64,000 nt of DNA, from positions 356,051 through 420,050 of the forward strand of contig SDOX01000005.1 of NCBI GenBank assembly GCA_004565275.1, in the 5' to 3' direction. Shown here one piece after another: positions 23,552 through 64,000 of the stretch; the stretch's first letter is position 1, and each line of letters begins with the position of its first letter. The translations under genes were made by a program, and so were the position numbers. The notes under the pieces are model-generated. The model saw only the letters and a list, made by a program, of their open reading frames with translations. It made no database searches and was not told the origin of the DNA. The stretch comes from Nannochloropsis salina CCMP1776. Its lineage: Eukaryota > Sar > Eustigmatophyceae > Eustigmatales > Monodopsidaceae.

Positions 23552-26500
23552 ATGGCCGTGCCGGCTGGTGACTCCCGACGCCTCGAGCAGCCGTCCGGGG
23601 CGAGACTTGATTTCCAAGGCTCAAAAAACCAAGGCGAAAGAGATACAAATACAAGCATGAACACTACTCTCGAAAGCACTGGCAGCAACGGCAGCACTGC
23701 GAGTCCTCCTCCGGGAATTCGAGATGCCCCATCGTCCCTCTCCACAGTCATGTCTTCCATGGTATCATCCCTGACGCAGCAGCAACTTGCCGTGCAAGGG
23801 TACATGGTCTTCGAAGCACAGATGACATCCCAGCAAAGTCCTGAGTACTTAAACGAGGAGCGTTATCGCCAGTCGTACGCCTCTGTTCGGGCGGCATACG
23901 AAGACATTCCTATCACCTGGCGCCTGAAGGAGCGGATGAAGACGGTCAGCGTGGCCCTGGTCCTCTGCCTGAATGTGGGGACAGACCCGCCCGACATGGT
24001 GAAAATCACACCCTGCGCACGGATGGAGTGCTGGTTTGACCCGCGCACCACGAGCAAGAGCAAGGCCATCGAAACGATTGGGAACAATCTGCAACAGCAA
24101 TACGAACGGTGGCAGGCCCGTGCGAAATACAAACAAGCCCTGGACCCCACGATCGAGGACGTGAAAAAACTTTGCGCCTCTCTCCGACGGAATGCGAAGA
24201 CAGACCGCCTCCTCTTCCACTACAACGGTCATGGCGTCCCTCGCCCTACCTCGGCAGGGGAGATCTGGGTGTTCAATAAGACGTACACGCAATATATTCC
24301 CCTCTCCATCTACGACCTGAGGGCCTGGGTAGGCACGCCGGCCATCTATGTCTTGGACTGCTCGGGCGCCGGCATCCTGCTGCCCCACTTTATGCAGACC
24401 CCTGTCATGCCCGCGTCTTCCCGGACCGCCGGGCTCGGGGGCTTGGATGGCCCCCCGCCCCCTCCCCCTTCCGGCCCGCCCGTGCCGCCGTCGCGACCCC
24501 GAAGCAACAGCAGTGGTGTCCACCACCGCGACTGCATTGTCTTGGCACCCTGTGCGGCGAACGAGCTTCTCCTCATCAATCACAAGTTTCCCGCGGACCT
24601 GTTCACGTCCTGCCTGACAACGCCCATCCTGGTGGCCCTGCGCTGGTTCATCGCCCAGAACCCTCTCTCCATGGCCGAGGTGGACGTGGAATTCGTGGAC
24701 CACATCCCAGGGAAGCTGAACGACCGGAAGACGCCTCTGGGCGAGTTGAACTGGATATTCACCGCCATTACAGACACGATTGCCTGGAACACCTTGCCTT
24801 CGACCGTTTTTCAGTACCTCTTCCGCCAAGACTTGCTTGTCGCCAGCCTGTTTCGCAATTTCCTCCTGGCCGATCGGATCCTCCGCTCCTTCAATTGCAC
24901 GCCCACCTCCATCCCCCGGCTACCCTCCACGGCGCAGCATCCCCTCTGGCAGGCCTGGGACCTGGCGGCTGAGTGCTGTCTGCACCAGCTTGTCGTGAAC
25001 AGGAAGCCGAGCCTGGTCTCCATGAGCTCGGCCGAAGCACGCTTGGTGGCCTCAGCCTCCGCAGGGCCAGGATTCTATTCCACAGTGACCGCCTCCACCA
25101 CCAATCCTTCCCCCTTTTCCTCCACCTCAGCCCCCCCCGGCTCCCTCTCCCATGCTCCTACCTCGGTCTCCTCGACAACCTTCTTTGCGGACCAGCTGAC
25201 AGCCTTCGAGGTATGGATCGAGTACACCACCATGGCACCCACCGGAGCCCCTCCGTCCAAGCCCCCAGACCAGCTCCCCGTGGTGCTACAGGTACTCTTA
25301 TCCCAAGCACATCGGCTCCGCGCCCTCCTTCTCCTCCGTCGCTTTCTCGACCTGGGCCCCTGGGCTGTCAACCTGGCCCTCTCCGTGGGGATTTTCCCTT
25401 ACGTTCTCAAACTCTTACAGAGCCCCGCCCCCGAACTCCGGCAAGTCCTTGTCTGCATTTGGGCGAGGATTCTTGCCTTTGATCCGTCTTGCCGCTCGGA
25501 TTTGGTCAAGGACAATGCCTACTTGTATTTCATCGGGCATTTGTCTGGCGCCGACGTTCGACCTGAGCAGCGGGTATTGGCCGCTTTCATTGTCAGCGCC
25601 ATCATGGACGAGTCGCGCTCCGGGCAGCGGGACTGCTTGAAGAAAGGCGTGCAACGGACGTGTGCTCATTTCTTGTTTTCGAAAGAAACCGAGGGCATCC
25701 CCGAGTTCAGGCGCTGGTTATGCTTCTGCCTTGGTCGGTTGGCCTTTGATTACGTGGAAGGCAAGGTCGCATGTTTGCGGGAAGACATCCATTTACACCT
25801 TTTTGGGCTGCTCGGGTCTCCACACGTCGCGGTGCGTGCGGCAGCTGTGCACACGCTGGGCACGTTCTTGGGGAGTGGCGGCGGACAACCGGGGGGAGGG
25901 GCAGGGAGGGAGAGTGGAAGTGGGCAAGGACAGGGGCACAACAGCAGCAGCAGTTTGTCCTCGATGTCTTCGCCTACCTCGGAGGTGGGGACCTTGGGGA
26001 GCTCGCCGGGCGGGGGGCGGTCGCCGTCGACCGGGCGGGCCGCATCTATTGACTTGGAAGCAGCGCGGAAGACGGATGTATCGGTGATTGGCCTTCCCAT
26101 GCTCCGAGCCTTCGATGACGTAAGTCCCATGGTCAGGCGGCAAGCAATCTTCGCGCTTTTCCTGTTGGTGACGGACAGCACACATTTCTCCTATTTCGTG
26201 TGGGTGGCGCACGAGCTGACACGGTTCAACGCCGAGAAACAGCAGCAGTATCCCCACGAGTCTCAGGTCCGAGGAGAGAGGAAATCCGGGCAAACGGATG
26301 GCAAAGGGACGATGCAGAAGTCTCGAAGCTGCGATTCGATTGCATCCTTGGATGCCTCGTCCTCCACGTCCTCAATGGTAGGCTTGGTATTGGACGAGGA
26401 GGCCGAGAGCCACGGCCGCAAAGAGGATCGTGCCTTAGGGTTGTCGCCATCGCAGCAAAAAGAGAGAGATGGTGAGAGGACAGGCAGCAGGAACAAAAAA

Positions 26501-29152
26501 GACTGGGACCAGGAAGCGCGGGACAAGGGGCAGAGGCTGTGGTGCCAAGCCTTGGCGGCGCGTCTCAAGAGGAAAGCTGGGGAGATAGGCGAACACTATC
26601 TGCTCATTTGGCTCGCGATACGACAAGTGCATCAAAAAGAGCCCTTTCCGCCTGTCGCAGACGTTGCTGGCCAGATCGTACACTTGGTCCACGAATGTTT
26701 GCTGGATATGAACCTAAATCCAAGCAAGAATGTGGCCTTTCCGGGTGCTTCCGCTCGTCCCTTACGCTCCACCGCCTCCGCCATGACGTTATCCCCCATG
26801 GAGCTGCAGCACCGACAAGAGCAAGCATCAGAGGAGCAGCCGCAGCCACGACACGATCATTTGCACCATGAAAAGCGAGAGCAATATGAAATCGACGCGC
26901 AACAGCAGCAAGGACGGCAAGAGAGCTCGCTCCTCGCCTCTCCTGGACTCTCTTCAACCTCTCATCCACCGCGTGTTCCCCCTCGCCCACCCCACCCGTC
27001 CGGCATCCCACCACGCAGCCCCCCTACCTCGGCAAATCCGAATGTTTCCTCCTCCCAGAAACAACAGCTTCGATCTCGGCAGCAACAGCAACATACATAC
27101 CGTGGGCATGACGGCCACTACCGGCTGTCGTCAGGAAAATATGTCGTGAATAATCTGCCGACTTGTCCTGCCCCCGCCCATCCTTCCTCGTCAAACCGCG
27201 TTCCTCTGGAGCGTGCCGTCTCGGCGCACGAGCTTGCCCGTCTGCCTACTCCCCAGGGGGACTCTGCCTGCCCCCCTCCGACGGGTCTGCGTGAAGCTGC
27301 CGGGCGCAGCACCGCTTCGCCCTACGGAGGCACAAATCACCTGCATGCAGGCCTCGGAAACAGCACCACAACTCCCAGTGGTCCGTCAGATAGACCCATT
27401 CCAGGTGGAGGAGTCAGCACGAGACCGTCAACGGCCTCCTCCCTTTTCCAATCTGCTTCGAGAACGGGGCCAGGGGGAAACACCCTAAAGGGGAGAGGGT
27501 CGGAAGAGGTTTTCGAGGGTGGCAGCTACGAGGCCAGAGGCTTGAAGCAATCGAAGGGGGGGCTTATGGGGAGGGCGGAGATGCCGGGCTCAGTGCCCTT
27601 GATCCGCCACGAATCTCTGGCGGCCCCTGACGACTCCACAGCCATGGGACAAGCCTCCTCCGCACGCTTCTCCTCGGCCACGGCCACCGCCCTGGCCGAG
27701 TCCCCCTCTTTGCAATGGCTACGTGTCCAGTTTCAAAGGACGAACATATACGCCTGGAGCAAGAAGCAGCTCTCCGCCCCCGCTGCCCTCTCTGCGGCGG
27801 AAGGTCCCGGAGGGGAGGAAGACGACCCGCTGTCACCGGAAGGACAGGTGGCGCTCTATCGACGGTCACGGAATCAGCGGGTGCTGGAGGAGGCCAAGGC
27901 CCTTACTCTGAAATGCATGGGTGTCCTGGGCATGCCGGAAGAGGAGGAGGACTCGGACCTGTACTTCATGTTGGGCGGGATCGATGCACTGCTGGCAGCG
28001 CAACGCGAGGGGATGGATGGCGGGGCTGAGGCTCGAAAAGGTAACGTGAAGAAGACCGCGCTAACGAAGAGCATGGGAGGTGCTGTGAAGCGTAAGAACC
28101 AGGTGCTTCGACTTCAGCAAAAAGTTGTATTTGAAAGCGACGCACAAATGACGTCGCAACTGTTGTTCCACCCCTTCGAGCCGCTTTTGGTTGCCTCGGA
28201 CGACCACGCCAACCTCCGGGTATGGAATCACGAGGACGGGAAGAAGCTGGGCGTGTTCAGGAATGAGCCGATTCCTAGCAAGGCATCGAGGATCACAAGT
28301 CTGGCTTGGTTGAACGAGGCAACCTCCTCCCTCTTGCTCACCGGGACGGATGAGGGGGTCGTCCGCGTGTGGAGCGGGGTGGTCCCGACGGGGGCGGACT
28401 GGGTTCCCCCCCGTCTGGCGACTGCCTTTTTCGCTCACGCACTCGTGGGGCGTGGCTTCGGCGTTGTCACGAAATGGGTCCACGGTGAAGGCCTCCTCTT
28501 GACGGGGGGAAGCTCGGACCGGCTTCGGGCCTGGGACTTGGAAAGGGAGCAGATGGTCAGGGAGTGGGAGACGGGTGGGGAGGCTTGCGTGACATGCCTG
28601 GCTGCCAGCACGCCTCACGGAGGGGCCGGCGGGCGGGACTCAGGGGGTAACGGGGCGCGTGGCTCGCAAATCTCATCCTCGCCTCTGGTGGTTGCCGGTT
28701 TCGGTGACGGCAAGGGGAAAATCTGGGACGTACGGGTGGATAAATGCGTTGGGGTCCTCACGGAGCATCAGCAATGGCTGGTGCTCACTGATTTTGTCAA
28801 AGGGGACCGAGAACTGCTCACAGGCTCCTTAACTGGTGAAGTTCGCGCCTGGGATCTGCGAAGGCTGAAGACTTCTCTTCGTACGATGAACGTGGGCAAA
28901 GGTCCCATGACAGCTATGGCGGCTCACCAGACCTGTCCTCTCCTGGCATCGGGATCTTACAACCAGTTCATCAAGATGTTGACGCTGGAGGGGGATACTC
29001 TCAGCGTCATCCGCTATCACGACGGGATCCTCGGCCAACGGATCGGTCCCGTGGCAACTTTGGCGTTCCACCCTTGTAAACTTGTTTTGGCGGCTGGGAC
29101 TACAGACTCCTTAACTAGCATTTATACAGCTCATTTTCCTCAAGCTAGCTAA
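23552..29152 (+). CDS. RPTOR: Raptor, regulatory subunit of TOR complex 1
   Basis: Scaffold that presents substrates to TOR kinase in TORC1. A single 1866-codon exon; animal Raptor is about 1335 residues. The N-terminal caspase-like RNC domain (about residues 85-400) is highly conserved, with RLLFHYNGHGVPRPTSAGE and IYVLDCSGAG holding the pseudo-protease His and Cys, and the invariant NKTYTQYIPLSIYDL. Helical HEAT-type repeats follow to about 910, interrupted by a Gly/Ser-rich loop around 770-830. Then comes a long low-complexity insert with Gln, Ser and Pro runs (about 900-1370). The C-terminus is a seven-blade WD40 propeller (about 1525-1866). TORC1 in algae links nutrient status to growth and lipid storage. 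The lack of introns in so long a gene is notable. Confidence 0.95.
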   Translation: MAVPAGDSRRLEQPSGARLDFQGSKNQGERDTNTSMNTTLESTGSNGSTASPPPGIRDAPSSLSTVMSSMVSSLTQQQLAVQGYMVFEAQMTSQQSPEYLNEERYRQSYASVRAAYEDIPITWRLKERMKTVSVALVLCLNVGTDPPDMVKITPCARMECWFDPRTTSKSKAIETIGNNLQQQYERWQARAKYKQALDPTIEDVKKLCASLRRNAKTDRLLFHYNGHGVPRPTSAGEIWVFNKTYTQYIPLSIYDLRAWVGTPAIYVLDCSGAGILLPHFMQTPVMPASSRTAGLGGLDGPPPPPPSGPPVPPSRPRSNSSGVHHRDCIVLAPCAANELLLINHKFPADLFTSCLTTPILVALRWFIAQNPLSMAEVDVEFVDHIPGKLNDRKTPLGELNWIFTAITDTIAWNTLPSTVFQYLFRQDLLVASLFRNFLLADRILRSFNCTPTSIPRLPSTAQHPLWQAWDLAAECCLHQLVVNRKPSLVSMSSAEARLVASASAGPGFYSTVTASTTNPSPFSSTSAPPGSLSHAPTSVSSTTFFADQLTAFEVWIEYTTMAPTGAPPSKPPDQLPVVLQVLLSQAHRLRALLLLRRFLDLGPWAVNLALSVGIFPYVLKLLQSPAPELRQVLVCIWARILAFDPSCRSDLVKDNAYLYFIGHLSGADVRPEQRVLAAFIVSAIMDESRSGQRDCLKKGVQRTCAHFLFSKETEGIPEFRRWLCFCLGRLAFDYVEGKVACLREDIHLHLFGLLGSPHVAVRAAAVHTLGTFLGSGGGQPGGGAGRESGSGQGQGHNSSSSLSSMSSPTSEVGTLGSSPGGGRSPSTGRAASIDLEAARKTDVSVIGLPMLRAFDDVSPMVRRQAIFALFLLVTDSTHFSYFVWVAHELTRFNAEKQQQYPHESQVRGERKSGQTDGKGTMQKSRSCDSIASLDASSSTSSMVGLVLDEEAESHGRKEDRALGLSPSQQKERDGERTGSRNKKDWDQEARDKGQRLWCQALAARLKRKAGEIGEHYLLIWLAIRQVHQKEPFPPVADVAGQIVHLVHECLLDMNLNPSKNVAFPGASARPLRSTASAMTLSPMELQHRQEQASEEQPQPRHDHLHHEKREQYEIDAQQQQGRQESSLLASPGLSSTSHPPRVPPRPPHPSGIPPRSPPTSANPNVSSSQKQQLRSRQQQQHTYRGHDGHYRLSSGKYVVNNLPTCPAPAHPSSSNRVPLERAVSAHELARLPTPQGDSACPPPTGLREAAGRSTASPYGGTNHLHAGLGNSTTTPSGPSDRPIPGGGVSTRPSTASSLFQSASRTGPGGNTLKGRGSEEVFEGGSYEARGLKQSKGGLMGRAEMPGSVPLIRHESLAAPDDSTAMGQASSARFSSATATALAESPSLQWLRVQFQRTNIYAWSKKQLSAPAALSAAEGPGGEEDDPLSPEGQVALYRRSRNQRVLEEAKALTLKCMGVLGMPEEEEDSDLYFMLGGIDALLAAQREGMDGGAEARKGNVKKTALTKSMGGAVKRKNQVLRLQQKVVFESDAQMTSQLLFHPFEPLLVASDDHANLRVWNHEDGKKLGVFRNEPIPSKASRITSLAWLNEATSSLLLTGTDEGVVRVWSGVVPTGADWVPPRLATAFFAHALVGRGFGVVTKWVHGEGLLLTGGSSDRLRAWDLEREQMVREWETGGEACVTCLAASTPHGGAGGRDSGGNGARGSQISSSPLVVAGFGDGKGKIWDVRVDKCVGVLTEHQQWLVLTDFVKGDRELLTGSLTGEVRAWDLRRLKTSLRTMNVGKGPMTAMAAHQTCPLLASGSYNQFIKMLTLEGDTLSVIRYHDGILGQRIGPVATLAFHPCKLVLAAGTTDSLTSIYTAHFPQAS

Positions 29153-38101: not shown

Positions 38102-41100
38102 CTAAATTGCACCGCTTTCCTTGGCATAATGCTCCTTTGTGGCGGCTAAAATTGCGTCCACGGTCTTCTTAGCATCGCCCAAAAGCATTTGGGTATTAGG
38201 CTGTATGTATGTATGTAGTGACATGATAAGCAGCTTGTTCATTGCACCATTCCTAGTGCCATCAATGGAATCGGTCACGATCTCCCGGCACTCGTCGCTT
38301 CCATCGATCCAATGTTCCCATTTAAGTGTCTGTCTCCAACGCACCTTCACAAACAGAGGGTTATCCACACCAGCGTATCCAGAGGCCATCGACCGCTTCA
38401 TGACAACGACGTTTTTACTCTCCCAAGCTCGAATCACGGGCATACCCGCCAAAGGGCTGTTTGGGTCTTCCTCAGCCGCACTGTTGACCGTGTCGTTGGC
38501 CCCTATCACAAGGCATGCGTCTGATTCGTGGATGTGTTCGTTTATTTCGTCCATTTCCTGTACCACGTCGTACGGTACACCCGCTTCCGCCAGTAGCACG
38601 TTCAGCTGCCCAGGCATGCGCCCTGCCACTGTCATGACGGGGGTATAGAGAAGTTCAGCATTCTATGTTTCTTGGAAGGGGATTAGGGTTGGAGGCACGG
38701 TACTCGTCAGAAAGTACATCTCCAGACCGAGACAAAGACTTTAGAAGAAGCCTCACCAGGATGAATGCCGAAGGTAGTCTTGATCCCGTGATGGTGCAGC
38801 TTTTCAACTAGCTCGGCAATGGCGTACTGAGCCTTGGCCACGGCCAGACCTGTAGCATTTTGGGGTAGGGCGTGTGTGTAAGTGAGGTAATTCAAACATC
38901 CCGACGCCTTCAGAGGAACGATATCCAAGTTCACTTCTTGTCACTCTTCTGCACAGGACTCTTCTCCCTTTCGTCGGAATAATGTAGGACGTACCATAGC
39001 CGGGAACAATCACCACCTTCTTGCTGTTCGTCAAAAGCTCCACAGTCTGCGCAACATCCGTCATGGTCGGCTCGCCCTCGATCTTCATGGCCTCCCCCTT
39101 GCCCGTCGACGTAGTGCCGTAGCCCCCCAGGAGGACGGAGACAATGTCACGGTTCATCGCTTTACACATGATATGCGTCAGAATGGCACCGGACGACCCA
39201 ATCAATGCCCCGACCGTCGTCAAGAGAGGAGAATTCAACATGAACCCCTCCGCACACAATGCCCAGCCACTGTACGAGTTCAGGACAGTCACCACCACCG
39301 GCATATCGGCCCCCCCGATTGATGCAGTCATGTGTGCACCGAGAGCTCCACTCAACAAGGATCCTGCTCCAAGGCACGCCAGCGCCCCTTCGGGCGAGCC
39401 GGCCAGACCAAAGCCTACTGCACTGGCGGCAGTTCCGACGCCAAGGCCGAGGTTGATTGCGTCCCGACCTGGGAGGGACAAGGCCTTGGAATGCAGCCAG
39501 CCTTGCAGCTTCCCAAAGGCAACGACAGAGCCCGTGGCTGTGATGGAACCGATCACACTTGCGAGGTAGACTGCGGACATGCGGGTGGAGTCCATGATTT
39601 CTGGATTCCCCAGGTAGAGCGTCGCGTCCCCGACAGCCGTTCCAAGCGCCGCCAGCCCAACGAGCGAATGGAAAGCGGCGACAGTCTGGGGCAGCTCGGA
39701 GGGGCCCACCTTGGCGGCGATTCGCAAGCCCATCAGACCTCCTCCACCGAGGAGACCCATGACCCCTGCGAGAACGGGCATGGGGGCTTGGAGAGAGCCC
39801 AGAGTGGCCAGCGTGCCCAGTCCCACGCCGCTCATCCCAAGGACATTGCCGAGCCGTGCCGTCTGCTGGGAAGACAGCCCCGCGATGCCTCCCACGCAAC
39901 ACAGCGCGGAAACAAGGGAAACGAGGGACGTCAAGTCTTCGCCGTGGCCGGCGTGGAGCCCGTACAGATACCCGGCGGCTAGGGTCCCGGCCGGGATGGC
40001 GTAGAGGTGGTTGTACTCGGGGGCGTCCTCTTTGCGCCGGAACATGTCCAGCATCGCTCCGGTCACCTTGAAACCTCCGCCGATGTTGACCGCTGAGATC
40101 AGTGTGGCGCCCGCTCCCAGGACCTGGGCGGTCAGGTGGCCGTCGTGTATGCCGTGGGATAAGAGGATCATTCCCCCCAAGGCGGTGGTCCCACTGATCG
40201 CGTTGGTCACGCTCATCAAGGGCGAGTGTAGAGAGTGGGCTACGCCTTGGACAGTGTGGTACCCCAACATGGTCGACAAGGCGAAGGTAGTGAGCATGCT
40301 GTTAAACGCCGGGCCGGGACCCGCCATTCCCAAGGCCACCATGCCCCCCGCGCCCACGCTTCCCCATAGGGCCTTGGTCAGAAATGCCTGTCGAGGGTCG
40401 ACCGCCACCACTTGAGCGTCCTCCGCCTTCGCTTTCCCAGCCGGCGTTGTGCCTGTGGCCACCACTGGACTCGGAGGCGGAGGCGGAGGCCAGGCCAGCT
40501 CCCCGTGGTCTGTGATCAGACATCCCCGGGCAGCCTCATCCTGGTGATCGATCTTGAAGACCCCTTTCTCCTTGGTCGTCTGGGGCCCGAGGGAGAGGAG
40601 GAACTTGCTCACGTTGTTGGCGAAGAGCGTGGAGGCCGTGGTGGGCAACCGGGAGGGTAGGTCCGTGAAGCCGACCATGGTCACGCCCTGCTCCGTCGTG
40701 TACACGCGGTTGGGCTCGGAGCCCGCCACGTTTCCCCCGGACTCGGCCGCCAGGTCCACAACCACGGAGCCCGGCTTGAGGAGAGCCACCATGTCCTCGT
40801 GGATCAAACGCGGGGCCTTTTTCCCCGGAATCAGCGCCGTGGCTATAATGATGTCGCATTCTCGGCACTGTTCCGCCAGGGCCCGACGGGCGGCTTCGTG
40901 CCAGGCGGCAGACATTTCCTGGGAGGAGAGAGGCGATCAGCTCGAGGTCACACACCAGACAGGGTCGGTCTCTCTCCGCAACACATTGGGGCATTGAACC
41001 CCCCCCCTCCGACCAGACTCGTTGCCCCACCATGTCTGATGGGCCGAGCAGATGGACGGAGGTCACGTACCTTGGCGTATCCGCCCGCGCCGCTCCCGTC

Positions 41101-42099
41101 CTCTTGATGGGCCACCTCCACGAATTCCCCTCCCAGGCTCTCCACCTGCTCCTTCACCACCGGACGCACGTCAAACGCCCGCACGACCGCCCCCAAATTT
41201 TTAGCATGCTGTATAGCCGACAGCCCCGCCACCCCGGCCCCTAGGACCAGCACTTTGGCAGGTTGCACCCGTCCGGCCGCCGTTATCTGCCCGGGCACAA
41301 AGCGTTGGAAGGCATTGAAGGCCTCAAGGACTGCTTTGTACCCGGCGATGTTCGCCTGCGACGAGAGGACGTCAAAGGCCTGTCCGCGCGAGAGCGTGCG
41401 GGGCAGCTGGTCCAGGCCCAGGACCGTGGCTTTGTTCTTCTGGAAGGTTTGCAGCAATGCGGGGTTCTGGGCAGGCTGGACGATGGAGATCAGTGCTCGG
41501 TCTTCTAGAAGCTGGGCTTCTTCTACAGACGGTGGGCGCACCTTGGTGACGATGTGCGACCTCCAAACGGCGCCGGTGTCCACAACGGTGGCTCCAGCCG
41601 CCAGGTACGCGGCGTCGGTATACCCGGCGCGGGCCCCAGCTCCTTTCTCGACGTTCACGCTGATCCCCTGCGATACTAGCTTGCTCACGGTTTCAGGGGT
41701 CCCCGCTACTCGGCATTCACCTGGGTATGTCTCACGTGGCACCCCGACAATGAGCTGGGCGTATGGCACCCCTGCCCGCAGGCCCACGATGCCGCCTGTT
41801 GATGGTGCCCCGGCGTTTTCGGAAGCCGTGGGGACTTTCGTGCTAAATGCCCGTGAGAAAACCAGGCGTCGCTGGGCCACGTATGACGATGAGATAGGCA
41901 CACGCGCTTGGAAACAACATGCTTGAGGATTAGCTGAGGGAGCGGTAATTTTAATGCCACCTATGTGGCGGCGGGCCCGTACACTCGCCCATGTCCGTGA
42001 TGTGCCCTTGGAGACAGTAGTACTGCAGGCTGCATTCGAGACCTTTACTCGCTGTGCTAACACCTTGCGAAGCATGCTAGAACCTAGGAGGACATGCAT
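38102..42099 (-). CDS. NNT: Proton-translocating NAD(P)+ transhydrogenase, alpha-beta fusion, mitochondrial
   Basis: Couples proton flow to hydride transfer from NADH to NADP+. Four exons, 42099-41071, 40918-38995, 38849-38757 and 38628-38102, join with matching phases (introns 152, 145 and 128 bp), giving 1190 residues. Residues about 115-480 are the NAD-binding alpha domain ([32 protein letters not shown] across junction 1). The middle has about a dozen membrane helices. The C-terminal 180 residues are the NADP-binding domain III ([14 protein letters not shown] and [18 protein letters not shown], both formed by splicing). One chain in alpha-then-beta order matches animal NNT; bacteria use separate PntA and PntB subunits. 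The basic Ser-rich N-terminus ([18 protein letters not shown]) suggests mitochondrial import. Confidence 0.95.
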
Positions 42100-42720
42100 G
42101 GGCGTTAGAGGTTTTATGTATGGGGTAGTCCGTCCACAAATTGACTGTAGCCTGCTTTTCTGTGTGAAGTTTCTTCTTCACGAGCACCCATCACAACCAT
42201 TGCAAATCCGCGCGTATTCTCACGGCAGAATTTCCGCAGCAGTTCCATTAAATTCACTAGAAATATAGACTCGGGGTTTGTAGGGCAGAAGACCGCCCAA
42301 GAATGGTGCCATTTTTTTCTCCACGGTAGCACGGGTGGGCTCTTCAAGCGCCTCTAACGTACAAATTTGGCGACATAGTCAGCCACAGGCAGCAGTCGGA
42401 AGCGGAACGTCACCACGGGGATAAAAAGGGTGCACAGATGCCGTCCGCGTCCTGCGGGATGTTTTCAAGAGGGTCTCAGAGCATGGTCTTGATTTATTGC
42501 TCCCTTGACGATCGTTGAACGGGTGTTGCACTCTTCAATTAAAAAGCAAATAGAACGAGTTTACGACGAGGGCTACATTTCGATATGTTTTTGTAACAAA
42601 ATAAAATCCTTTCATCATTTTTCTTCCAGTTGAGAAGGGGGAGTCTTATTCAAACAGTGGGGCACGTTATTTTATGACTTTATCCGCCGTTCAAGCTCGA
42701 TTTGGGGTTTCCCAAGTACT
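42100..42720. other. Intergenic region between two minus-strand genes
   Basis: Promoter of the transhydrogenase and the 3' flank of the alpha/beta hydrolase. Frames on both strands near 42114-42347 have no features. The stretch 42540-42610 is AT-rich. Confidence 0.45.
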
Positions 42721-45295: not shown

Positions 45296-48200
45296 ATGTC
45301 GAGAGAGTATTTCTCTGGTGGGCGCGAGGACTTGCGGGGAAAGAGACATCTCAGCCCGCGACATCACAGTGATGCAAGCACGGACTGGTTTGGTTCTTAC
45401 CATCGGCCGCACATTCCGTTTGAGGACCGGCATCATCCTCACGCTCTCCCTCCCACCCTTTTTCATGCTCTGCCGGCCGAAGGCCATGGGCGGGGGCCCC
45501 GACGAGGGGGGTTTCCTGTCTCGTACTCGCCACCCAGGATGCCGAGACAGCACGACCCCCCCCATTGGCTCCCGTTGGAAGAATGTGACGGTCCTTCGGA
45601 TCATTCCTTTCCTTCCACGGGGATGCCACTTGACGATTTGGACGAGGGACGAGGTTGGCGTCGGCCTCGCGTCTCCTCTGGCCAGCACTCGCACGCGATT
45701 CCCCCTCCGCCCGCCCACTCCTTCGCTTCTCCTTGGACGTCTCGCTCGTTCCCGCCGGCGCAATCTCACTCACGCTTCGGTGGCCTTGAGCATGGCGAGT
45801 CCAGTCGACAACACGAACAGTGGGGAGTGCGGAAGGAGGACCAGCTTCGCCGTGGTTGGGAGAGGGATCGTTGGGAGAGAGGGTGGGACAGAGAAGGATC
45901 CCGCTATTTAGTCAACGTGCCAGAGAGAGTGAGAAGAAGCGAAAGAGAAGCACAGACTTCGTTCAATTCATTTCCGGAGCAAACGTTGAAAGTGGTAGGG
46001 AAGACTTTCTCACATCATACAAAGGGAGGCTTCGTTCAGACGGGAGCTGTAGGGCGTGGAAGGATAAGGCAGGGAGAGCATGGCTACCTAGCGACCTTGT
46101 CTTTACCAGAGAAAGTTCTGGGAAAGCCCACTTTTTCTCCCTCGTCCTCCTCGTCCTCTCTCTCCTCGTTGCGCGACAGCGGCGGAGACAGCCTTGCCCC
46201 TCCCGCGGGAGACGAGGTGAGAGGATCCCTCATCCAGGGCGAGGGCGACAGCGTCAACGGGAGCCTCGGTCATAAACGAGGGCGTAGCGATCAAAAATGT
46301 GGATTTTCCGTGAAAAAGGCCAAAGGAAGCGGACACATCCCTGTCGGAAAGGCACGGGATGGCATTTCACTTTCCATTAAGAAGGACGAACAACTTGAAC
46401 TTGCAGTGACCATCGTTCGCGCCACCTTTTGCGCGCATATTTCGAGTCTACACGGCCATTGCTCCGCCGACCCTGCTTTCCTTCCGTGTCCGTTCCAAAA
46501 CGTGGGGGACTTGCCGCCTCCCACCGACCCCCTGGGCGAAGTGTTGGGCGAGAAGGCACGCTCCACGCTCTCCGAATGTGGCTTCCGAGCAATGCTACAG
46601 GGTGTTGGGGATGCCCTTTTGCGGATTATCCCGCGGAAAGGACAGGCAGGCGAACCCGTGGAGATCATGGTCTCCAAGGATCTGTTGACCGAGCTTCGGA
46701 ACTATTTTTGTTTGAAGTCATCAAACGCCAATAAAAGGAAACCGACCCTGAAGCAAGAGATCATTCAGAGGACCGCGAAGGCAGTGTGCGTAGGGGCGAG
46801 CGCGTTGGGCAAAGAGAAGGAGCGAGGCTACGCAGAGATGTTGCTGAGTATTCCGTGGGACGTGATTGCGTACTGTAAGAAATCCATTTTGCATCGACTG
46901 ACGGCGTTGGTTAAATGTGTGTCGGAGGAAGAGGAGAGTGTGCCGCGTGGGCTGCTTTCTAGCGCCCTACAGCGTTTATCACGTCCTTCCTCCGCTTTAT
47001 GGTATGACTCTAGTCAAAAGATACTGAGGTGCGTTGAAGGGGGAGGAGCCTTACCGCAGGGTCGCGGATAAGGTCGACGGTTTATTGAATAAGGTATTTT
47101 AACGTTGAGCGTGAGGTTGAGAATTATTTCCTCCCCCCCCCACCTAGTCTTATGGAGCAGCTTGACAGGCTACAAATTCCTCCAGTCCTACCAGACAGCG
47201 CTTTAGTCTCTTGCCGGGCCCATGCTGAAAATCACCAAATTGAGCAGTCTCCCAACCCCACTGCTGTGGCTAGTAACGAAACTGGCACAAGTGTGGAAAC
47301 TGACAGGAGGCGCATGCTGAAGCCCTTGAACGACGTTTTTGACAAAACATCCCCTACTCTTGCGTGCGATGATGATGACAACGCTTGTGTCATTTATTCC
47401 CCCGAGCGAAATCTGGAAGAAGACACCGACGAACTTGGTTCTCCGGTAGTATCCCCGCTCCATTCCCCGTCATCTCGAGGCATCCAGCAGACCGCTGCAC
47501 TTGGTAAACATGGGAAGAGAGAAGGTTTCTATGAAAATGGCCCTTCGGCCTCTTCCCTCGCTCCTGTTGCAGCTTGCAATACCGTTTCGGGCTTTCCTGC
47601 CCCGACCGCCTTGCCCGCCTCCTCGCTCGCTTCCTCTGTGCCCCGAGATCCCCGTAAGCTTGCGAGGGAGAAGATTGCGCATCGGACTACGGCTGTTAAA
47701 AAAGTTGATTTCCTCTTGCCAAATGAAGAGGACTCAGGCGGTCATTGCAAACGCACTACTTACATGCGCAGCCATGTGTTTGAAGCCATAAGGGCAACGT
47801 CCAGACAGACCTCTTACAGTAAATCATGCCCGCATTGTCAAAGTCAGATATCTACGCTTCGGTGTGGGAAGTGTGGTAGGTGCGAGCATTGCTCTTCGAT
47901 CATCTTTTGCAAGGGTGCCGAGAGGCGAAGCCGTCTGACGGAGATCGGCCATGTCAATCGATTGAGTGAACGGATGGATAGGGCTATTTGGGACGCATTT
48001 AAGGACGTGAAGAAAGGGTTTGACCCCATTTTGGCATTAGTTCAGCACGCTGGAGTGAGTGTCAATTTTAGCCGGCCCGCAAAGGGCGAAACTGCGCTGA
48101 TGGCAGCTGCTTTCCATGGCAAACTAGCAACGGTTAAGGAGCTCTTGAGTTTAGGCGCAGATCCGTGCCTAAAAACAGCTGATGGTCATACGGCATCGAC

Positions 48201-48312
48201 ATTCGCCAACAAATACAATCACAAAGAGTGTGCAGGGTTGTTGGCGATGCACCCTGTCGCGGTTCCCGCCCAGCGAGATGGAGTGCGCCTCGGGCATGGG
48301 AGGCAGCGCTAG
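45296..48312 (+). CDS. Unrecognised Ser/Arg-rich protein with Cys cluster and ankyrin repeats
   Basis: Two long frames, 45296-47028 and 47148-48312, join in phase 2 across a 119-bp intron with donor GTGCGT and a strong C-tract acceptor. This makes one protein of about 965 residues. If not spliced, the first frame stops 14 codons later and a second protein would start at 47152. The first 330 residues are disordered and rich in Arg, Ser, His, Gly and Pro (RRGWERDRWERGWDREG). Residues about 370-575 are helical and unlike any domain I know. The C-terminal part has a Cys cluster (CPHCQSQI then CGKCGRCEHC, near 800-825) and two ankyrin repeats (GETALMAAAFHGKLATVKEL). Nuclear or RNA-associated function is a guess from the basic low-complexity start. 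Confidence 0.6.
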
Positions 48313-57320: not shown

Positions 57321-58088
57321 TCACTTCTGCTTCTGCTTAGCCTCTTCCGCACGCGCTTTGGCGATATAGGCGTCCTTGTCTTTCAAGTATTCGTCCACCT
57401 CCCGCTCAGCCTGCTCTTTCGAAATACCTTCGTGTGTGTGCACAAAACCAATCATAAACGAGATTTTAGCAGACATGAAGAGTAAACCCTGCCACCAACA
57501 AGAACATTTCCTGTGAAGACGTCTAATTTCGTCGCCGTACGTTCCGTTTGACTCACCTGTCTTTTCCATATACTTTACTACCATCGCATCCCGCTTTCCC
57601 GCCCACATTCCTTTCTTCGCATCACCCCAAGGCAATAGCTCGTTCAAAAATCTAGACCCCATTTCCATGAAGTCGAACCCTTCGCGAAGAACCGTCCGAG
57701 AACTGCGGGTCAGTGGCTAGGGTCGTAGGTCAGGAAGGAGAGGATAATTACCGGAATGCAAATTACTACTCCCTCATCACAGAGAATCATGAAGTCCTTC
57801 ATATTTCAAGCCCCGTGTATGATTGGGAGCGCTATGACACGAAATAGCTCACAATAAATGTCTTTGTTTTCTGTCAAAAAAGAATCCGTCAATGCTCGCA
57901 AGACGTACTACCCAATTACTCATCCTTGATGGATGTTAGACTTCAACCGTTCTGAAGGCGTCACTCCTGACAGTATGTTGTTCAGCATGCTACATTACCT
58001 GAGGGCGAAGTACAAATGCGTTGCCGCTGCTCATAAACAAGAAAACCCAAAGAGCAACCAATAGTTGGCAGGGTGCAGCAACCTTCAT
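57321..58088 (-). CDS. Small plastid-targeted protein, incompletely resolved exons
   Basis: Three exons are clear. The first, 58088-57999, reads MKVAAPCQLLVALWVFLFMS then SGNA|FVLRPQ, a textbook signal peptide with a Phe-led plastid transit peptide, ending at a GTAATG donor. An internal exon (about 57702-57557) reads SRTVLREGFDFMEMGSRFLN and ends YMEKT. The last, 57427-57321, reads ISKEQAEREVDEYLKDKDAY and joins the internal one in phase 1 across a 129-bp intron. The first and internal exons do not match in phase, so a small exon between 57703 and 57998 is missing from my model or the internal border is wrong. The mature part is helical and charged; the family is unrecognised. Confidence 0.55.
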
Positions 58089-58617
58089 GTTGAAAAGGAG
58101 GCAAGGCAAGAACGACGAAGCAAAAGCGGTTCTCTGAGGAAGCAGGGGGATAACGACAGGAAGGGATGAAGATGAGGGACAAGATTTCCAATGGCCTTCA
58201 CGGGACACCTGTGCAATAAACATGCCCAATCCATACTAATGCACCAAAGTGCCGAGATGCACCAAAGTGCCGTGTGCATCTCGGCACGGCTTCGAAACAA
58301 GGACCCTGCGCATCCAAGCAGAACAAAAGCCTCTTGCCTCCCGGCCCTCCTGCCAGTCCAGCAACGGCTGGGCCCATGTCCCTTGTTCTTCGCCTGCATT
58401 GGGAGGGGTCACAGCGTCTCCGTGGCCTTTAGAAATCACGAGAACCACCTACTGTCACAATGGCAGCAACCACAAGAGCATTCCAGGTTTATCTGCATGA
58501 GTTGCTTGCCAAATTGTTACAGCTATGTTTTTAAGTACTGCTGAACCTCCACGCTGCGCATGACGACATACACATACTCCTTCACTTCTCGCACGTCGCT
58601 TTACAGTGGGCAGCCTC
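58089..58617. promoter_or_regulatory. Divergent region with a perfect hairpin, upstream of the PPCS-lipase fusion
   Basis: About 530 bp between divergent starts. It contains the 13-bp perfect inverted repeat at 58249-58287, listed separately, and a polypyrimidine/TTTACAG string at about 58585-58606, which could be the acceptor of an unseen 5' exon for the fusion gene. Confidence 0.4.
58249..58287. repeat. 13-bp perfect inverted repeat with overlapping direct repeat
   Basis: Arms gtgccgagatgca (58249-58261) and tgcatctcggcac (58275-58287) are exact inverted copies around a 13-nt loop. The loop region also repeats gcaccaaagtgcc from 58241. It lies in the leader/promoter area upstream of the fusion gene. 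It could form a strong hairpin or bind a dimeric factor. Confidence 0.8.
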
Positions 58618-61600
58618 ATGTGGTTCACCAACTCCAGGGATCCCAGTCCTAACGATGATGCCTATATCGCTGCATTTTACAAGGAATTGGATGCTGCTGA
58701 AGGCCAAAATCAGGATGGGCGCATAGGTGACCGCCCCACCGCGGTAGCATCGATCACGGAGGGGCTTGCAGATGCGGCCCAGAGCATCCGTGCCTTCATC
58801 GAATTACAGCAACAGCAATGGATAGATTCGCCTTATCATACTAGTAGCACGGACGGCGTTGTCTCGCCTTCCTCAATCGGCAGTACACCTCCCATCCGCC
58901 TGGCTATTGTCACAAGCGGGTCTGTCCCTACACCTCTGGACACGGGCATGGTCAATTACCTCGACACTTTAGGATCCGGTAACCGTGCAGCAGCTTGTGC
59001 AGAAGCATTTCTCAAAGCAGGATACCACGTCTTATTTTTGTATCGGGAAGGCTCGCTGAGGCCGTATTCCCGTGTGCTTGCCAAGCGAATGAAGAAAGCT
59101 CAAACACTCACTGAGCAGGTGCGATTAAATGCGGAAGGGCACTTGGAAATGGTCTTGGACCCTACTGAGGAAATCTGCATGACAGAGATGATCGCCAGGT
59201 ACGAAGCCGTAAAGAGTCGATTGCTTGAGGTAACCTTCTCAGATTTATTTGGATACCTCTACCTCCTCCGAGAAGCTTGCCTGGCCGCATCGCCCCTCGG
59301 CCCCAGTGCTTTGCTTTTCCTGGCCGCAGGGCTCACAAAAATGTTCATCCCTCGACACGAGCTAAGGAAACCTTCGTCTGCTTTTCTTGATCAAGGGAAA
59401 GAGGCCCTCAAGCTTTCCCCCGTGCCTCACGTCATTCGAGCCGCCCGGCAAAGCTGGTGTCCGTTGGCCTTCCTGGTGGCTTTCAAACTCGAAAACGATA
59501 CTCTCACCCTTGTGGAGGGGGCGCACAGATTGCTGGAACGACACGGTTTGCACTTGGTCGTCGGCAATACCGTGAATGACCGGAACCGCCGCGTCCTGAT
59601 CGTTACCGCGCGCGACGAAACCAGACTGGTTTCGCCCAAGGAGAAGGAGCTGGAGCCGGGTATGGTTAAGGCTGTGATTCGGGCGCACAGACACTTCACT
59701 TTGGAACGGGAAGCGCTGAAGTCCAGTCGCTCGTTGCTTGGACTGTCCGCCAAATTCACCATGCTCCGAGAGAATAAGAGCCTGGTCGACGAAGACGCCT
59801 ACGGGAACAAGCAGGTGCCCTTCAAGGTCGGTCTTCACATCAAAGGGGATCGCCGCGCCCAGCACTCGCCCATTTATGAGCTCAAAGCGGTGTACACGAA
59901 CAAAGAGGCGTCGGCAAGGGCAAACTTGTGGCAGCGCGTCGTTGACGAGGAGGGTCTTCGGGGGGAGGGAAAGGCTGGCGCCGACGGAGAGCTGGTTGGT
60001 TGCAGGGACGACGCGTCTAAGGGGCCCGGGAGCAACGTGAGCAGCTCTCCAGCTCTCTCTGTAGAGGGTTCGCCCTCTGAGGAAGCCAAGCGAGGGCGTC
60101 GAAAAGAACTTCTCCTGACCTTTTCTCCCGCAGGTACGAACGGCACACCGCTCCCAATCCTGTGTGTCATCAGCATTATCGCCGTCCTGTCCCTCCTCTT
60201 TTCATCAACCCTCCACATCCGTCCGTTACTTCTCTGTTCCTTGTCTGCCACTTTTCATGGCAAGTTCTCTCTCGAGCGCCCCATATCGAGTCGCCCTCAT
60301 AGCATTCCCCGCGCATCCCTTCCGCGCCATCGACACCAGGCAACCCGGAGACAATTCTCAACCTTTGGGGCGACACCTACAAGGGATGGCTTGAGGATGA
60401 AGTCAAACGCATCGTCACTGCCGCGAAACACATCCCCCTGAGCACGTACCTGAAGATACTGGCTGCACCTGTGACCGCGGATTTCACGGACCTCGCTGAC
60501 CTGCTCTGTCGCCTCCGGGAGTCCATCGCCCAAGCCTGGGAGAAACGAGAACGGACTCAATTCATTCAGAGCTACAACAATTTGATGAGTCTGGCCTTTG
60601 ATCGGGGCCTGACGCCCGTGGAAGGGCTCATGGATGCACATGACCTGTTGGGTCGCCGGCGGGCATTGGAGGAGCAGGAGCGCATCAGAGGTTACTCTAC
60701 CCCAAGGTCCTCCTCTTCTGGGGCTAAGACGTTCCGTGCATCATGCCGCCTTTCTAGTACCGACTCGGACTATGACCACGGAGGAAGAGGAAACAGGCGG
60801 AGACGCATGGGAGGGGAGGGAGGGGTCAAGATAGTGAAACTTCACAAACCCGTCTTCCGCGGTCTCTCGATTGGGAGCATGCTCCACCAGCAACACCAAA
60901 CGTTCTTTTCTTGGAGAAGAAACAGCAGAAAGAGTTCGGGGTTGGACGAGCAAGGCAGGCAAGAACGTGGGAGCAGGCTGAGCCTGTCGAGAAACGGGCT
61001 ACCCGTTGCGGACGCGGACAGGGAGGAGGAGGAGTTGGTTGGGAAAGCAGGGACCGTGCGGGTGCACGCCACAGTAAAACGCTTCGCGGAAGACATGCTC
61101 TCGGAGGGCTTGCTGGATGATGTGTTGCAGTGTTTGGAAGCTGCCCCCGATTGCCGGCTGGTAATCACGGGCTACTCCCTGGGCGGGATGCTCTCTCAGC
61201 TTTTCTGCCTCTACCTAGGGGAGGCCCTGGTCCAACGGGGGATGTCCACCCAACAGGTGCTTATGATGGGGTTCGGAAGCCCCCGGGTCGGCGACGATGG
61301 TTTCAAAGCGCGTCTTCGTCTTCTCTACCCCCAGCAGAGCGCATTGATGAACGCGGTATACCCGCTCGATACCTTGCACGCCTTTCCCCCGGCCTCGGAG
61401 GGCTATGCCGACGCGGTGGTGAAAGTGTTCCTGCGACAGCCAGGCCAATTCGTGGGCCGGCGGACGCCCTCCCGCTCCACCCCTTTCGCCACACCATTGT
61501 CCTGGCTGCGGGTCTTCGACACCAAGGTCGACGAGATTGCCTCCAAGCACCGTCAAGAGGTTAGGGCGAGAGGGGCAACGGGGGAGACCCTGGTCGGATC

Positions 61601-62048
61601 CCGAGGAAGCGAGGACGAATGTGTCTTGTGCGCTTCGAACGCTCATACTACCCTCCGCCACCGCTGTCGAATCTGTACGGAACGAGGATCCCATCGCTCT
61701 GCCGATTGCCCCAACCGGGGCAAAGGTTGCAAGCTTTGCGGCCTGCCTGACCACCCGACAGGACAACATTTGTGCAGTGTCTGCAAGCTTCCCGGTCACC
61801 GGGGCCGTTATTGCCATGAATTACAAAGCGTCGGATGGGCCGAGTTGGCGGCTTTTGCTCTCTTCCACGATGCTTCCTACTATTCCCTGGCTACCGCTGC
61901 CGAAGATCCTGTCAGCTTGCGGCGCATGGCTCCCGTTCCGACCACTCCGCCTCGGCCCCCACGCTCCCATGCAGGTGCCACCAAAGCCCTCGGTGTCACT
62001 TTCCACGAAGATGATTTGAAGCAGCTCGAAACCACCAAAGACGCATGA
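58618..62048 (+). CDS. Fusion: PPCS-like domain + class-3 lipase-like domain + CCHC zinc knuckles
   Basis: Exons 58618-60133 and 60340-62048 join in phase 1 (donor CAG|GTACGA, 206-bp intron), giving about 1074 residues. Residues about 85-365 match eukaryotic phosphopantothenoylcysteine synthetase: AIVTSGSVPTPLDTGMVNYL, AEAFLKAGYHVLFLYR, SALLFLAAGLTKMFIP, AFKLENDTLTLVEGAHRLLE and VVGNTVNDRNRRVLIVTARD. Several usual residues differ (DTLGSG for DNFSSG; LTKMF for VSDFY), so activity is doubtful. Residues 370-505 are unassigned. The second exon has a lipase-3-like core: VRVHATVKRFAEDML, nucleophile Ser785 in GYSLGG, and MGFGSPRVGDDGF. The C-terminus (about 930-1000) has Cys/His knuckles such as CSVCKLPGHRGRYC. 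The upstream frame opens with GTG; ATG 58618 is the first Met. Two separate genes remain possible. Confidence 0.6.
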
Positions 62049-63140
62049 CACCCAATGTAGGCCGCGGCACATCTTGGAGGGCCGCATCGCAACACGTCTC
62101 AGATAACCTCCCTTCCATAGTTTTTACGTAAAGTGTAAGTTCTGGACCGCCCATTGAGAACATGGTTATGAGTAGAGAAAGAAGAGGATGTGTACATTCC
62201 AATTTTAACAAAGAAAATTATGTCGGAGTGAGAGCTTTTGTCTACACTTGTTGAGCTGGTGTTGTGTTTCATTAGACCTTGCCTTGATTCGTGTTACCAA
62301 GAGCTCGCAACGTTGCTAGATGTGTGGAAGGGTCTTTATTTTCCAGAAGGAGATCATAATGTGTTTCAAATACTAAAGCGGCCCGTAAATAGCTGTTAAT
62401 TGGTCATAATCTGTTTCAAATACTGAAGCGGCCCGTAAATAGCTGTTAATTGGTCTAAAAGCAAGGCTAAAGCTCAGCAAGCCAGTCATGACCACATCGC
62501 CACGCGACATTGCCAACTAGGCTAGGTCTCCATGTCAGCCTCAAATTTACTACCCTTGAACACTTTCACCCGATATGCTTCCATGCTGTCACAAATCAGC
62601 CCTCTCGTCTGTTTGTCCTGCCTGTTGTTCCTGAATGGAACGAGCTCGTTTCGTTGTTCTTTAAACACACGTCCAACGCCCGCAAGTACCCCAATGCTTC
62701 AATTCACCATTTTCCAATGAAGCACGCTGTGTCTCATACATGGAACACAAGCTAGCTTGTCCAAGCGAACAACGTTCGCTTCATGACAATTTGTGGTTTA
62801 GTCAGGCCGATTTCAGCAGGCGCCTGATCGCCCCAGACGGACATCTCGGCCCTGTCGCTCGTGGGACTGGCTGGGAGCACCCGAGGAAATTATATACCGC
62901 GTCACTTTTGAAGGAAGTGGAAGAAGACTACGAACACTTTGCATGCGCATCCGTGTACATATTTACGCGTGTAAGCGGTGTCCGTTTCTCGTTTGTTGTT
63001 TGCTTATAGTTCGACGGCGGCCAAGTTGCCCTCCTCCTCCATCTCTTCAACCCGCTTCCTGCGCACTAACCTGCTTATCTCCCCTCTTCCTCCCTCCCTT
63101 CTTCCTCCTTTTACTTTTTGATGCACGACCGCAGGAAAGA
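62049..63140. other. 1.1-kb intergenic region with tandem repeat
   Basis: 3' flank of the fusion gene and promoter of phosphoglycerate dehydrogenase. It holds the 50-bp tandem duplication at 62354-62455. A plus frame at 62740-63009 has no features. Confidence 0.45.
62354..62455. repeat. 50-bp tandem direct repeat, two copies
   Basis: Copies starting at 62354 and 62404 (tcataatNtgtttcaaatac and on) repeat with a period of exactly 50 bp and only two mismatches across the unit. It is AT-rich and non-coding. A recent local duplication is the simplest reading. Confidence 0.9.
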
Positions 63141-64000
63141 ATGTTGTCTCGCGCTGTGACAGGCCTGCAGGCGTCGGGAAAGGCGGGAATCGTAACGGGG
63201 CGTCGCAACATCTCGCACACACAGGTAAAACGGAGGTGTGCGCTGACATGCGGTTGCTGTATGTCCGTCTGCTGCTCTCAAATATCTGTAGATGCTCCAC
63301 TCTTCCGCATTCAATGTTTTGTTTCACATCTCTCAAAGAAGTGTTATAATAATGAGACATCTCTGTCGCATGTGCACAGGCGCGGTTGGCCAAGATTCTG
63401 TTGAGCGACGCCACAGATAAAATATGCGCGGAGCAATTTAAAGCCCGTGGGCATGATGTGGACAGCAAACCTGGCTTGAGCAAGGAGGAGCTGAAACAAA
63501 TCATTGGACAGTACGATGGTGAGTTTGTGCGTTTGGATCAGAGGAGTGTCGTCCCAGGGGTTGGGGGCGACGAAATTTATGAGCTAGGGGAAAATGTCCG
63601 CCACACTTTCAGGACCCTAAAAATATCCGTCCGCACTTGGCTGTGTTGTAGCAATGCCTGCTCCAATCTCAGTCACATTGTCATCGCGATTGGGGACAAT
63701 GGCCTACGCGTCACTTTTACCATCGAGTGATTCACGGGTCTTGTTGACGATGTAAATGCGTACATGGACGTATATCCTAATTTCTATCCGCCTCTCCTAC
63801 GAACAGGTCTTGTCGTGCGCTCGGCGACGAAGGTCACCAAGGACATTCTCGCTGCTGCAACCAACCTGAAGGTCGTGGGTCGGGCAGGTACAGGCGTCGA
63901 CAACATTGACACGCCCGCTGCCACCATGCAAGGGGTGCTCGTCGTGAATACACCGGGAGGCAACACCATCTCCACGGCCGAGTTGACCTTCACGCACATG
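63141..64000 (+). CDS. serA: D-3-phosphoglycerate dehydrogenase, N-terminal part (runs off the window)
   Basis: First enzyme of the phosphorylated serine pathway, oxidising 3-phosphoglycerate to 3-phosphohydroxypyruvate. Exons 63141-63224, 63380-63518 and 63807 onward join in phases 0 and 1 (introns 155 and 288 bp). The protein begins with a basic, Ser-rich organelle presequence ([20 protein letters not shown]) without a signal peptide, so a mitochondrial location is more likely than plastid. The catalytic domain starts [17 protein letters not shown], then [35 protein letters not shown] and [15 protein letters not shown], all standard for the D-isomer 2-hydroxyacid dehydrogenase family, PGDH branch. 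The NAD-binding domain and C-terminus lie beyond the window edge. Confidence 0.93.

What the first reader, a model, noticed from the sequence alone, without database searches (positions are those of the whole stretch)
58618..62048. Possible fusion of a CoA-pathway enzyme domain to a lipase and zinc knuckles
One phase-consistent reading path links a divergent phosphopantothenoylcysteine-synthetase-like domain, an unassigned 130-residue region, a class-3 lipase-like core (GYSLGG, FGSPRVGDD) and a block of CCHC-type knuckles. I know of no described protein with this order. Substitutions at usual nucleotide-site residues of the PPCS part suggest it may sense a ligand rather than catalyse. A link between CoA supply and lipid hydrolysis in an oil-rich alga would be new. 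Seen: motifs and matching splice phase. Inferred: that it is one transcript.
Basis: partly seen in the sequence, partly recalled or inferred. Interest (0 to 1): 0.75.

Follow-up and report, generated by a model that had tools for sequence, protein, structure and literature searches.

The report
Pseudo-PPCS, lipase and zinc-knuckle fusion gene
A eukaryotic gene, probably algal, appears to encode one protein that joins a worn-down relative of a coenzyme-A-making enzyme to a fat-splitting enzyme and a cluster of zinc-binding motifs, an unusual combination whose function is untested.

Summary
The observation largely holds. A frame at 58618-60133 encodes a clear relative of eukaryotic PPCS (phmmer 2.1e-37 to human PPCS). 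A second frame, 60303-62048, encodes a class-3 lipase core (Pfam 6.2e-13) and a Cys/His block, with no splice between those two. Joining the frames needs one intron, best at 60134-60339. The first frame has no stop before 60439-60441 and the second no in-frame ATG before 60585, though codon scores support it from 60342. A one-transcript model beats the best non-overlapping two-gene model by 10.9 bits; the same scoring was right for 4 of 5 controls. No RNA or related eukaryote could be examined. The PPCS-like domain keeps the fold but has changed Arg55, Asn59 and Asp183, which human, yeast and two bacterial relatives all keep, so it is probably not a working PPCS. The lipase keeps its Ser, an aligned Asp and a candidate His. 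The "CCHC knuckles" are two tandem C2H2-CCHC-like units; one strict knuckle. Best reading: a PPCS-derived pseudoenzyme, dimerisation or regulatory domain fused to an acyl hydrolase. The link between CoA supply and lipid hydrolysis is conjecture.

The parts
58618..60133 (+). Exon 1 (proposed): N-terminal region, PPCS-like domain and C-terminal extension; start ATG 58618 not proven
   Evidence: Open frame 58564-60441; codon score clearly positive in this frame to about 60020, weakly positive (0.3 to 5.0) on to about 60230; 60037-60132 neutral (-0.06)
58897..59664 (+). PPCS-like (CoaB-type) domain, residues 94-349; among others R55N, N59T, S61G, G66A, A180G, D183K in human numbering
   Evidence: phmmer 2.1e-37 to 7edz; residue map
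59665..60133 (+). Extension after the PPCS-like domain, no recognised family
   Evidence: Codon score positive to about 60020; for 59680-60036 only a PDB match at E=0.76
60134..60339 (+). Proposed intron, CAG|GTACGA ... CACCAG|GC, 206 bp; alternative 60037-60302
   Evidence: Best of all one-intron joins scored; acceptor weak by a generic matrix (-0.6)
60340..62048 (+). Exon 2 (proposed): helical region, lipase core, Cys/His block, tail; TGA stop 62046-62048
   Evidence: Open frame 60303-62048; joined translation 1074 aa, no stops
60342..60740 (+). Unassigned region before the lipase core; helical only in a model of very low confidence
   Evidence: Codon score of 60342-60584 is 21.4, above 287 of 287 controls; PDB match only E=0.49; model
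61053..61334 (+). Lipase_3 (class 3 lipase) core; GYSLGG 61170-61187, FGSPRVGDD 61272-61298; nucleophile Ser codon 61176
   Evidence: Pfam PF01764 6.2e-13; PDB matches to EDS1 (3.2e-05), feruloyl esterase A (0.00077) and fungal lipases
61368..61370 (+). Candidate catalytic Asp (PLD)
   Evidence: Aligned with an Asp in feruloyl esterase A (sNDgip) and lipase 6qpr (erDivp); its catalytic role there is recalled
61548..61550 (+). Candidate catalytic His (ASKH), 60 residues after the Asp
   Evidence: Inferred from spacing only; class-3 spacing is recalled
61620..61814 (+). Cys/His block: two tandem copies of C-x2-C-x4-H-x4-H-x-C-x2-C-x4/5-H-x4-C
   Evidence: Pattern scan and shuffles; the two-copy pattern was read by eye

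Best explanation
One gene, in its simplest model two exons, encodes a protein of about 1074 residues: a PPCS-derived domain that has probably lost PPCS catalysis, an extension and linker, a class-3 lipase core that is probably an active acyl hydrolase, and a C-terminal zinc-binding Cys/His block. Most likely mechanism (inferred): the PPCS fold, a dimer in known eukaryotic PPCS, holds the lipase in a dimer or tethers it to the true PPCS, and the Cys/His block docks it on RNA or protein partners. Whether the retained nucleotide-site residues bind anything is open. Shown: domains, frames, residue changes. Inferred: splicing, catalysis, zinc binding, dimerisation, docking.
For: PPCS homology over 256 residues. 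R55/N59/D183 changed while human, yeast and two bacterial relatives keep them; G43/G63/F230/K231/N258 kept in all five rows. Bacterial CoaB R207, N211 and D281 (cation) are described as active-site residues, and eukaryotic CoaBs as stable dimers, in PMC7794376 (passages, section 6). Lipase_3 above its cut-off. Codon support upstream of any in-frame ATG in ORF B. One-gene model 41.8 against 30.9 for two non-overlapping genes; both separate-gene controls and 2 of 3 one-gene controls called rightly. The gap between the coding stretches (about 206 bp) is smaller than the distances to the next features on either side, a 131-aa minus-strand ORF ending at 57716 (no Pfam match) and the PHGDH-like start at 63141 (about 0.9 and 1.1 kb).
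Against: No transcript. The acceptor at 60339 is weak (-0.6) and the donor at 60134 moderate (4.2). One of three one-gene controls was wrongly scored as two genes, by 2.7 bits. With overlap allowed the best two-gene score is 33.2 against 41.3. A strong acceptor at 60133 (7.5) after a GTGAGC donor at 60037 (1.7) suggests another splice form. Codon scores in the lipase frame are low or negative at about 60700-60960 (a further intron is possible there) and negative in the Cys/His block, where frame 1 and a reverse frame are positive, perhaps because Cys/His codons are rare in the training set. No homologue with this order was found, but those collections hold almost no eukaryotes. The single-sequence structure model was useless (mean pLDDT 39.3).
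Confidence: 0.7

Rival explanations
1. Two adjacent genes, a PPCS-like gene and a lipase/zinc gene, wrongly joined on paper.
For: An ATG at 60257 can be spliced to exon 2 through a 76-bp intron, and a 70-bp intron can bring the upstream frame to a stop at 60118.
Against: The lipase start needs a 7-base first exon and a poor donor (-6.7); total 10.9 bits worse with no charge for gene ends; little room for a 3' end and a promoter.
Confidence: 0.15
2. The joined protein exists only as one of several splice forms; a shorter PPCS-like form ends at the TGA at 60392-60394. This can be true together with the best explanation.
For: The 60037 donor (1.7) and 60133 acceptor (7.5) pair scores well and leads to that stop.
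Against: Frame 2 is not coding-like across 60134-60392 (scores -0.2 to -16); no RNA.
Confidence: 0.15
3. A true PPCS with altered substrate geometry, fused to a lipase as a bifunctional enzyme.
For: Fold and G43/G63/F230/K231/N258 kept.
Against: R55, N59 and D183, kept in four of four comparison proteins, are all changed, D183 to Lys.
Confidence: 0.1

Closest known systems
Eukaryotic PPCS (human PPCS 7edz/1p9o; yeast CAB2 6ai8)
   Same: Homologous over residues 94-349, 36% and 30% identity; FKLE motif and Asn258 kept
   Different: R55, N59 and D183 replaced; the Lys of the HKIQ / GKI loop, kept in the four other rows, is Ala in the alignment; fused to a lipase and a Cys/His block
Class 3 lipases (Pfam PF01764; fungal lipases, feruloyl esterase A, plant EDS1)
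   Same: GxSxG elbow and GSPRVGD stretch, above Pfam cut-off
   Different: GYSLGG instead of GHSLGG; the first 30 profile positions not matched; low-complexity stretch ahead of the core; fusion partners
CCHC zinc knuckles (Pfam zf-CCHC families)
   Same: One strict CX2CX4HX4C
   Different: Two tandem C2H2-CCHC-like units; Pfam match not significant
Yeast Hal3/Vhs3/Cab3 (PPCDC relatives with a regulatory role)
   Same: Precedent for a CoA-pathway enzyme fold with a second, regulatory role (starts of abstracts in the listing)
   Different: A different CoA enzyme (PPCDC) and a phosphatase as target; similarity is of idea only

Membership tests
PPCS / CoaB | Sequence homology to solved PPCS over the domain | tested here: met
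   E 2.1e-37
PPCS / CoaB | Conserved Arg55, Asn59, Asp183 (human numbering) | tested here: not met
   N, T, K here; R, N, D in human, yeast, L001, L003
PPCS / CoaB | ATP-site residues G43, S61, G63, G66, F230, N258 (roles recalled) | tested here: inconclusive
   4 of 6 kept (G43, G63, F230, N258); S61 and G66, identical in the four other rows, are G and A here
PPCS / CoaB | PPCS catalytic activity | not testable with these tools
   Needs an assay
Class 3 lipase (PF01764) | Profile match above curated cut-off | tested here: met
   49.3 bits, cut-off 22
Class 3 lipase (PF01764) | GxSxG nucleophile elbow | tested here: met
   GYSLGG at 61170-61187
Class 3 lipase (PF01764) | Complete Ser-Asp-His triad and oxyanion site | tested here: inconclusive
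   Asp aligned; His and a VFRG oxyanion candidate by spacing and motif only; model unusable
CCHC zinc knuckle | CX2CX4HX4C | tested here: inconclusive
   1 of 4 knuckle-like matches is strict; Pfam E=1.1, below cut-off

The most novel reading that the evidence does not exclude
A PPCS-derived pseudoenzyme domain senses a CoA-pathway metabolite or pairs with the true PPCS, and so controls an attached lipase: a single-protein link between CoA supply and lipid hydrolysis, with the zinc block placing it in the cell.
Probability: 0.15. Interest if true: 0.7.

Novelty: new variant of a known kind. Interest (0 to 1): 0.45.

Why it matters
CoA is needed to activate fatty acids set free by lipases (established knowledge). 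A protein carrying both a CoA-pathway fold and a lipase would be a direct candidate for coordinating the two, of interest in oil-rich algae if the source is one. Even without that, it would be a case of a PPCS fold put to a probably non-catalytic use, comparable in idea with yeast Hal3 for PPCDC.

Tried and rejected
Whole-genome search: not possible, no genome held. Relatives: viral contigs with each half and with the PPCS alignment gave none; genome contigs with the 1074-aa protein gave none; genome contigs with the PPCS alignment gave 4 prokaryotic loci, L001-L004. I aligned L001 and L003 and left out L002 and L004, whose matches cover only query residues 160-260 and 168-227. Plasmids (lipase half only) and phages (PPCS half only): none. 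Self-comparison within the window found no second copy; beside the gene itself one match at E=0.62. The PDB match of the Cys/His block (7on7) rests on repeated weak stretches and was rejected. NAD_binding_5 for the helical region (E=0.062, 13.2 bits, cut-off 25) and XopAP for the lipase half (E=0.12) were rejected as below cut-off.

Error of my own: the PHGDH-like control exon was given the wrong frame (63143 for 63141), and one pair (syntaxin|31334) was no real test, since 31334 is antisense to a peptidase ORF; one search repeats the controls with the right frame and replaces here. The piece 63143-63230 scanned was out of frame for the same reason and says nothing.

Literature: nine searches, of which 9, 14, 23, 33, 34 and 50 bear on such a fusion. 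Two returned nothing, one returned a single paper (14); for 23, 34 and 50 I saw only the 12 of 20, 10 of 2364 and 8 of 588 listed. No title or abstract start that I saw concerns a PPCS-lipase fusion. The library lacks most subscription papers and supplements were not readable, so this is weak evidence of absence. Species: not determined. Window G+C is 53.6%; N. oceanica CCMP1779 is given as 53.8% with mean intron 230 bp (PMC3499364, passages): compatible, no proof.

Full report
Observation. The frame starting at ATG 58618 runs open to 60441. Its residues 94-349 match human PPCS (2.1e-37) and residues 94-358 yeast CAB2 (2.8e-27), and Pfam DFP passes its cut-off (34.8 against 22). A second open frame, 60303-62048, contains a Lipase_3 domain (49.3 bits against 22), with plant EDS1, feruloyl esterase A and fungal lipases among the PDB matches. 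In the same frame, without any splice, follows a Cys/His block at 61620-61814.

Is it one gene? Codon statistics were trained on 15 other ORF stretches of the window (23,400 bases, this gene not included). The first frame scores clearly positive to about 60020 and weakly positive (0.3 to 5.0) on to about 60230; from about 60260 to 60350 no forward frame is positive; the second frame is positive from about 60380 (window centres). In one search, 60037-60132 in frame 1 is neutral (-0.06) and 60303-60341 in frame 0 negative (-4.4), which favours an exon start near 60340. The second frame has no in-frame ATG before 60585, yet 60342-60584 scores 21.4, above 287 of 287 open wrong-frame windows (maximum 19.0) and at or above 73% of 381 true coding windows. 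So an upstream exon most likely feeds it. The best join is an intron at 60134-60339. With generic splice matrices (recalled), one gene reaches 41.8 and the best non-overlapping two-gene model 30.9, with no charge for gene ends; with overlap allowed two genes reach 33.2 against 41.3 (slightly different edges).

Controls for that scoring (which corrects a frame error): the separate-gene pairs raptor|syntaxin (15.5 one, 30.1 two) and lipase|PHGDH-like (-1.0, 8.1) were called as two; the one-gene pairs PNT (86.6, 71.6) and PHGDH-like exon 1|2 (14.4, -3.8) as one; PHGDH-like exon 2|3 was called wrongly (22.8, 25.5). That is 4 of 5. A further pair of unknown structure, 45296|47089, scored 23.5 and 28.0. 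The names raptor, syntaxin and PNT rest on Pfam; PHGDH is recognised from the sequence by recall. Some control genes were also in the codon training set. Not settled: the junction could be 60037-60302 (1054 aa), and a strong acceptor at 60133 points to a possible further splice form. Codon scores are low at about 60700-60960, so another intron there is possible.

What the PPCS-like domain is. In alignment A2 the window protein was compared with human, yeast and two of the four bacterial loci fetched (L001, L003). I looked at 23 chosen positions. Eight of them are identical in the four other rows and changed here: T45V, R55N, N59T, S61G, G66A, A180G, D183K, S198D (human numbering). G43, G63, F230, K231, L232, E233 and N258 are identical in all five rows. 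The VRxxxN motif also appears in the printed alignments of CoaB chains 2gk4 and 5int. PMC7794376 (passages; section 6) names R207, N211, A280, D281, I292, K293 and K294 of M. [quoted passage not shown] I matched R207, N211 and D281 to human R55, N59 and D183 by motif spacing, not by a printed alignment. Roles of single human residues beyond this are recalled from Manoj et al. 2003, which I did not read. The domain is therefore PPCS-derived but fails a tested defining feature, and I do not file it as a PPCS.

What the rest is. The lipase core keeps the GxSxG elbow (GYSLGG) and an Asp aligned with lipase chains; a His lies 60 residues later, near the recalled spacing in class-3 lipases, so catalysis is plausible but unproven. 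The Cys/His block can be read as two copies of C-x2-C-x4-H-x4-H-x-C-x2-C-x4/5-H-x4-C. Four knuckle-like matches occur by a loosened pattern, one strict; 1 of 20000 shuffles of the block reaches four, 304 of 20000 reach its four CXXC pairs, and of 5246 sampled windows of the six-frame translation only 7, all over this block, reach three or more. Pfam does not recognise it (zf-CCHC_2 E=1.1). Against its being coding: codon scores there are negative in the lipase frame and positive in frame 1. I judge the regular Cys/His spacing the stronger evidence. Zinc binding is inferred.

How it probably works. Shown: the domains, the frames and the residue changes. Inferred: a single transcript (about 0.85), a non-catalytic PPCS-like domain (about 0.8), an active lipase (about 0.65); these are judgements. 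Eukaryotic PPCS forms stable dimers (PMC7794376, passages), so the domain may dimerise the lipase or pair with the true PPCS; the Cys/His block may bind RNA or protein. Regulation by a CoA-pathway ligand is the bold reading and is not tested. Yeast Hal3/Vhs3/Cab3 (abstract starts in the listing) show that CoA-pathway folds can take on regulatory roles.

Limits. No genome, RNA or other ochrophyte sequence was available; the searched collections are mainly prokaryotic, plasmid and viral, so missing relatives say little. Literature searches that bear on such a fusion showed no such paper among the rows listed. The structure model was too poor to use.

Noticed in passing
62354-62455: Two tandem copies of a 50-bp unit, 96% matching, just downstream of the gene.
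   Followed up: no
45296-47071 and 47089-48312: Two stop-to-stop frames on the + strand 17 bases apart, the second with ankyrin repeats; may be one gene. The two-gene score was higher (28.0 against 23.5), unresolved.
   Followed up: partly
23522-29152: A 1876-aa open frame with Raptor_N, HEAT and WD40 matches: a Raptor (TOR complex 1) homologue unbroken over that length.
   Followed up: no
38807-42177, - strand: NAD(P) transhydrogenase with alpha- and beta-type domains on two open frames; a joining intron scores better than two genes (86.6 against 71.6).
   Followed up: partly
58240-58289: Repeated TGCACCAAAGTGCCG with an inverted partner (GTGCATCTCGGCAC) upstream of the gene, seen by eye.
   Followed up: no
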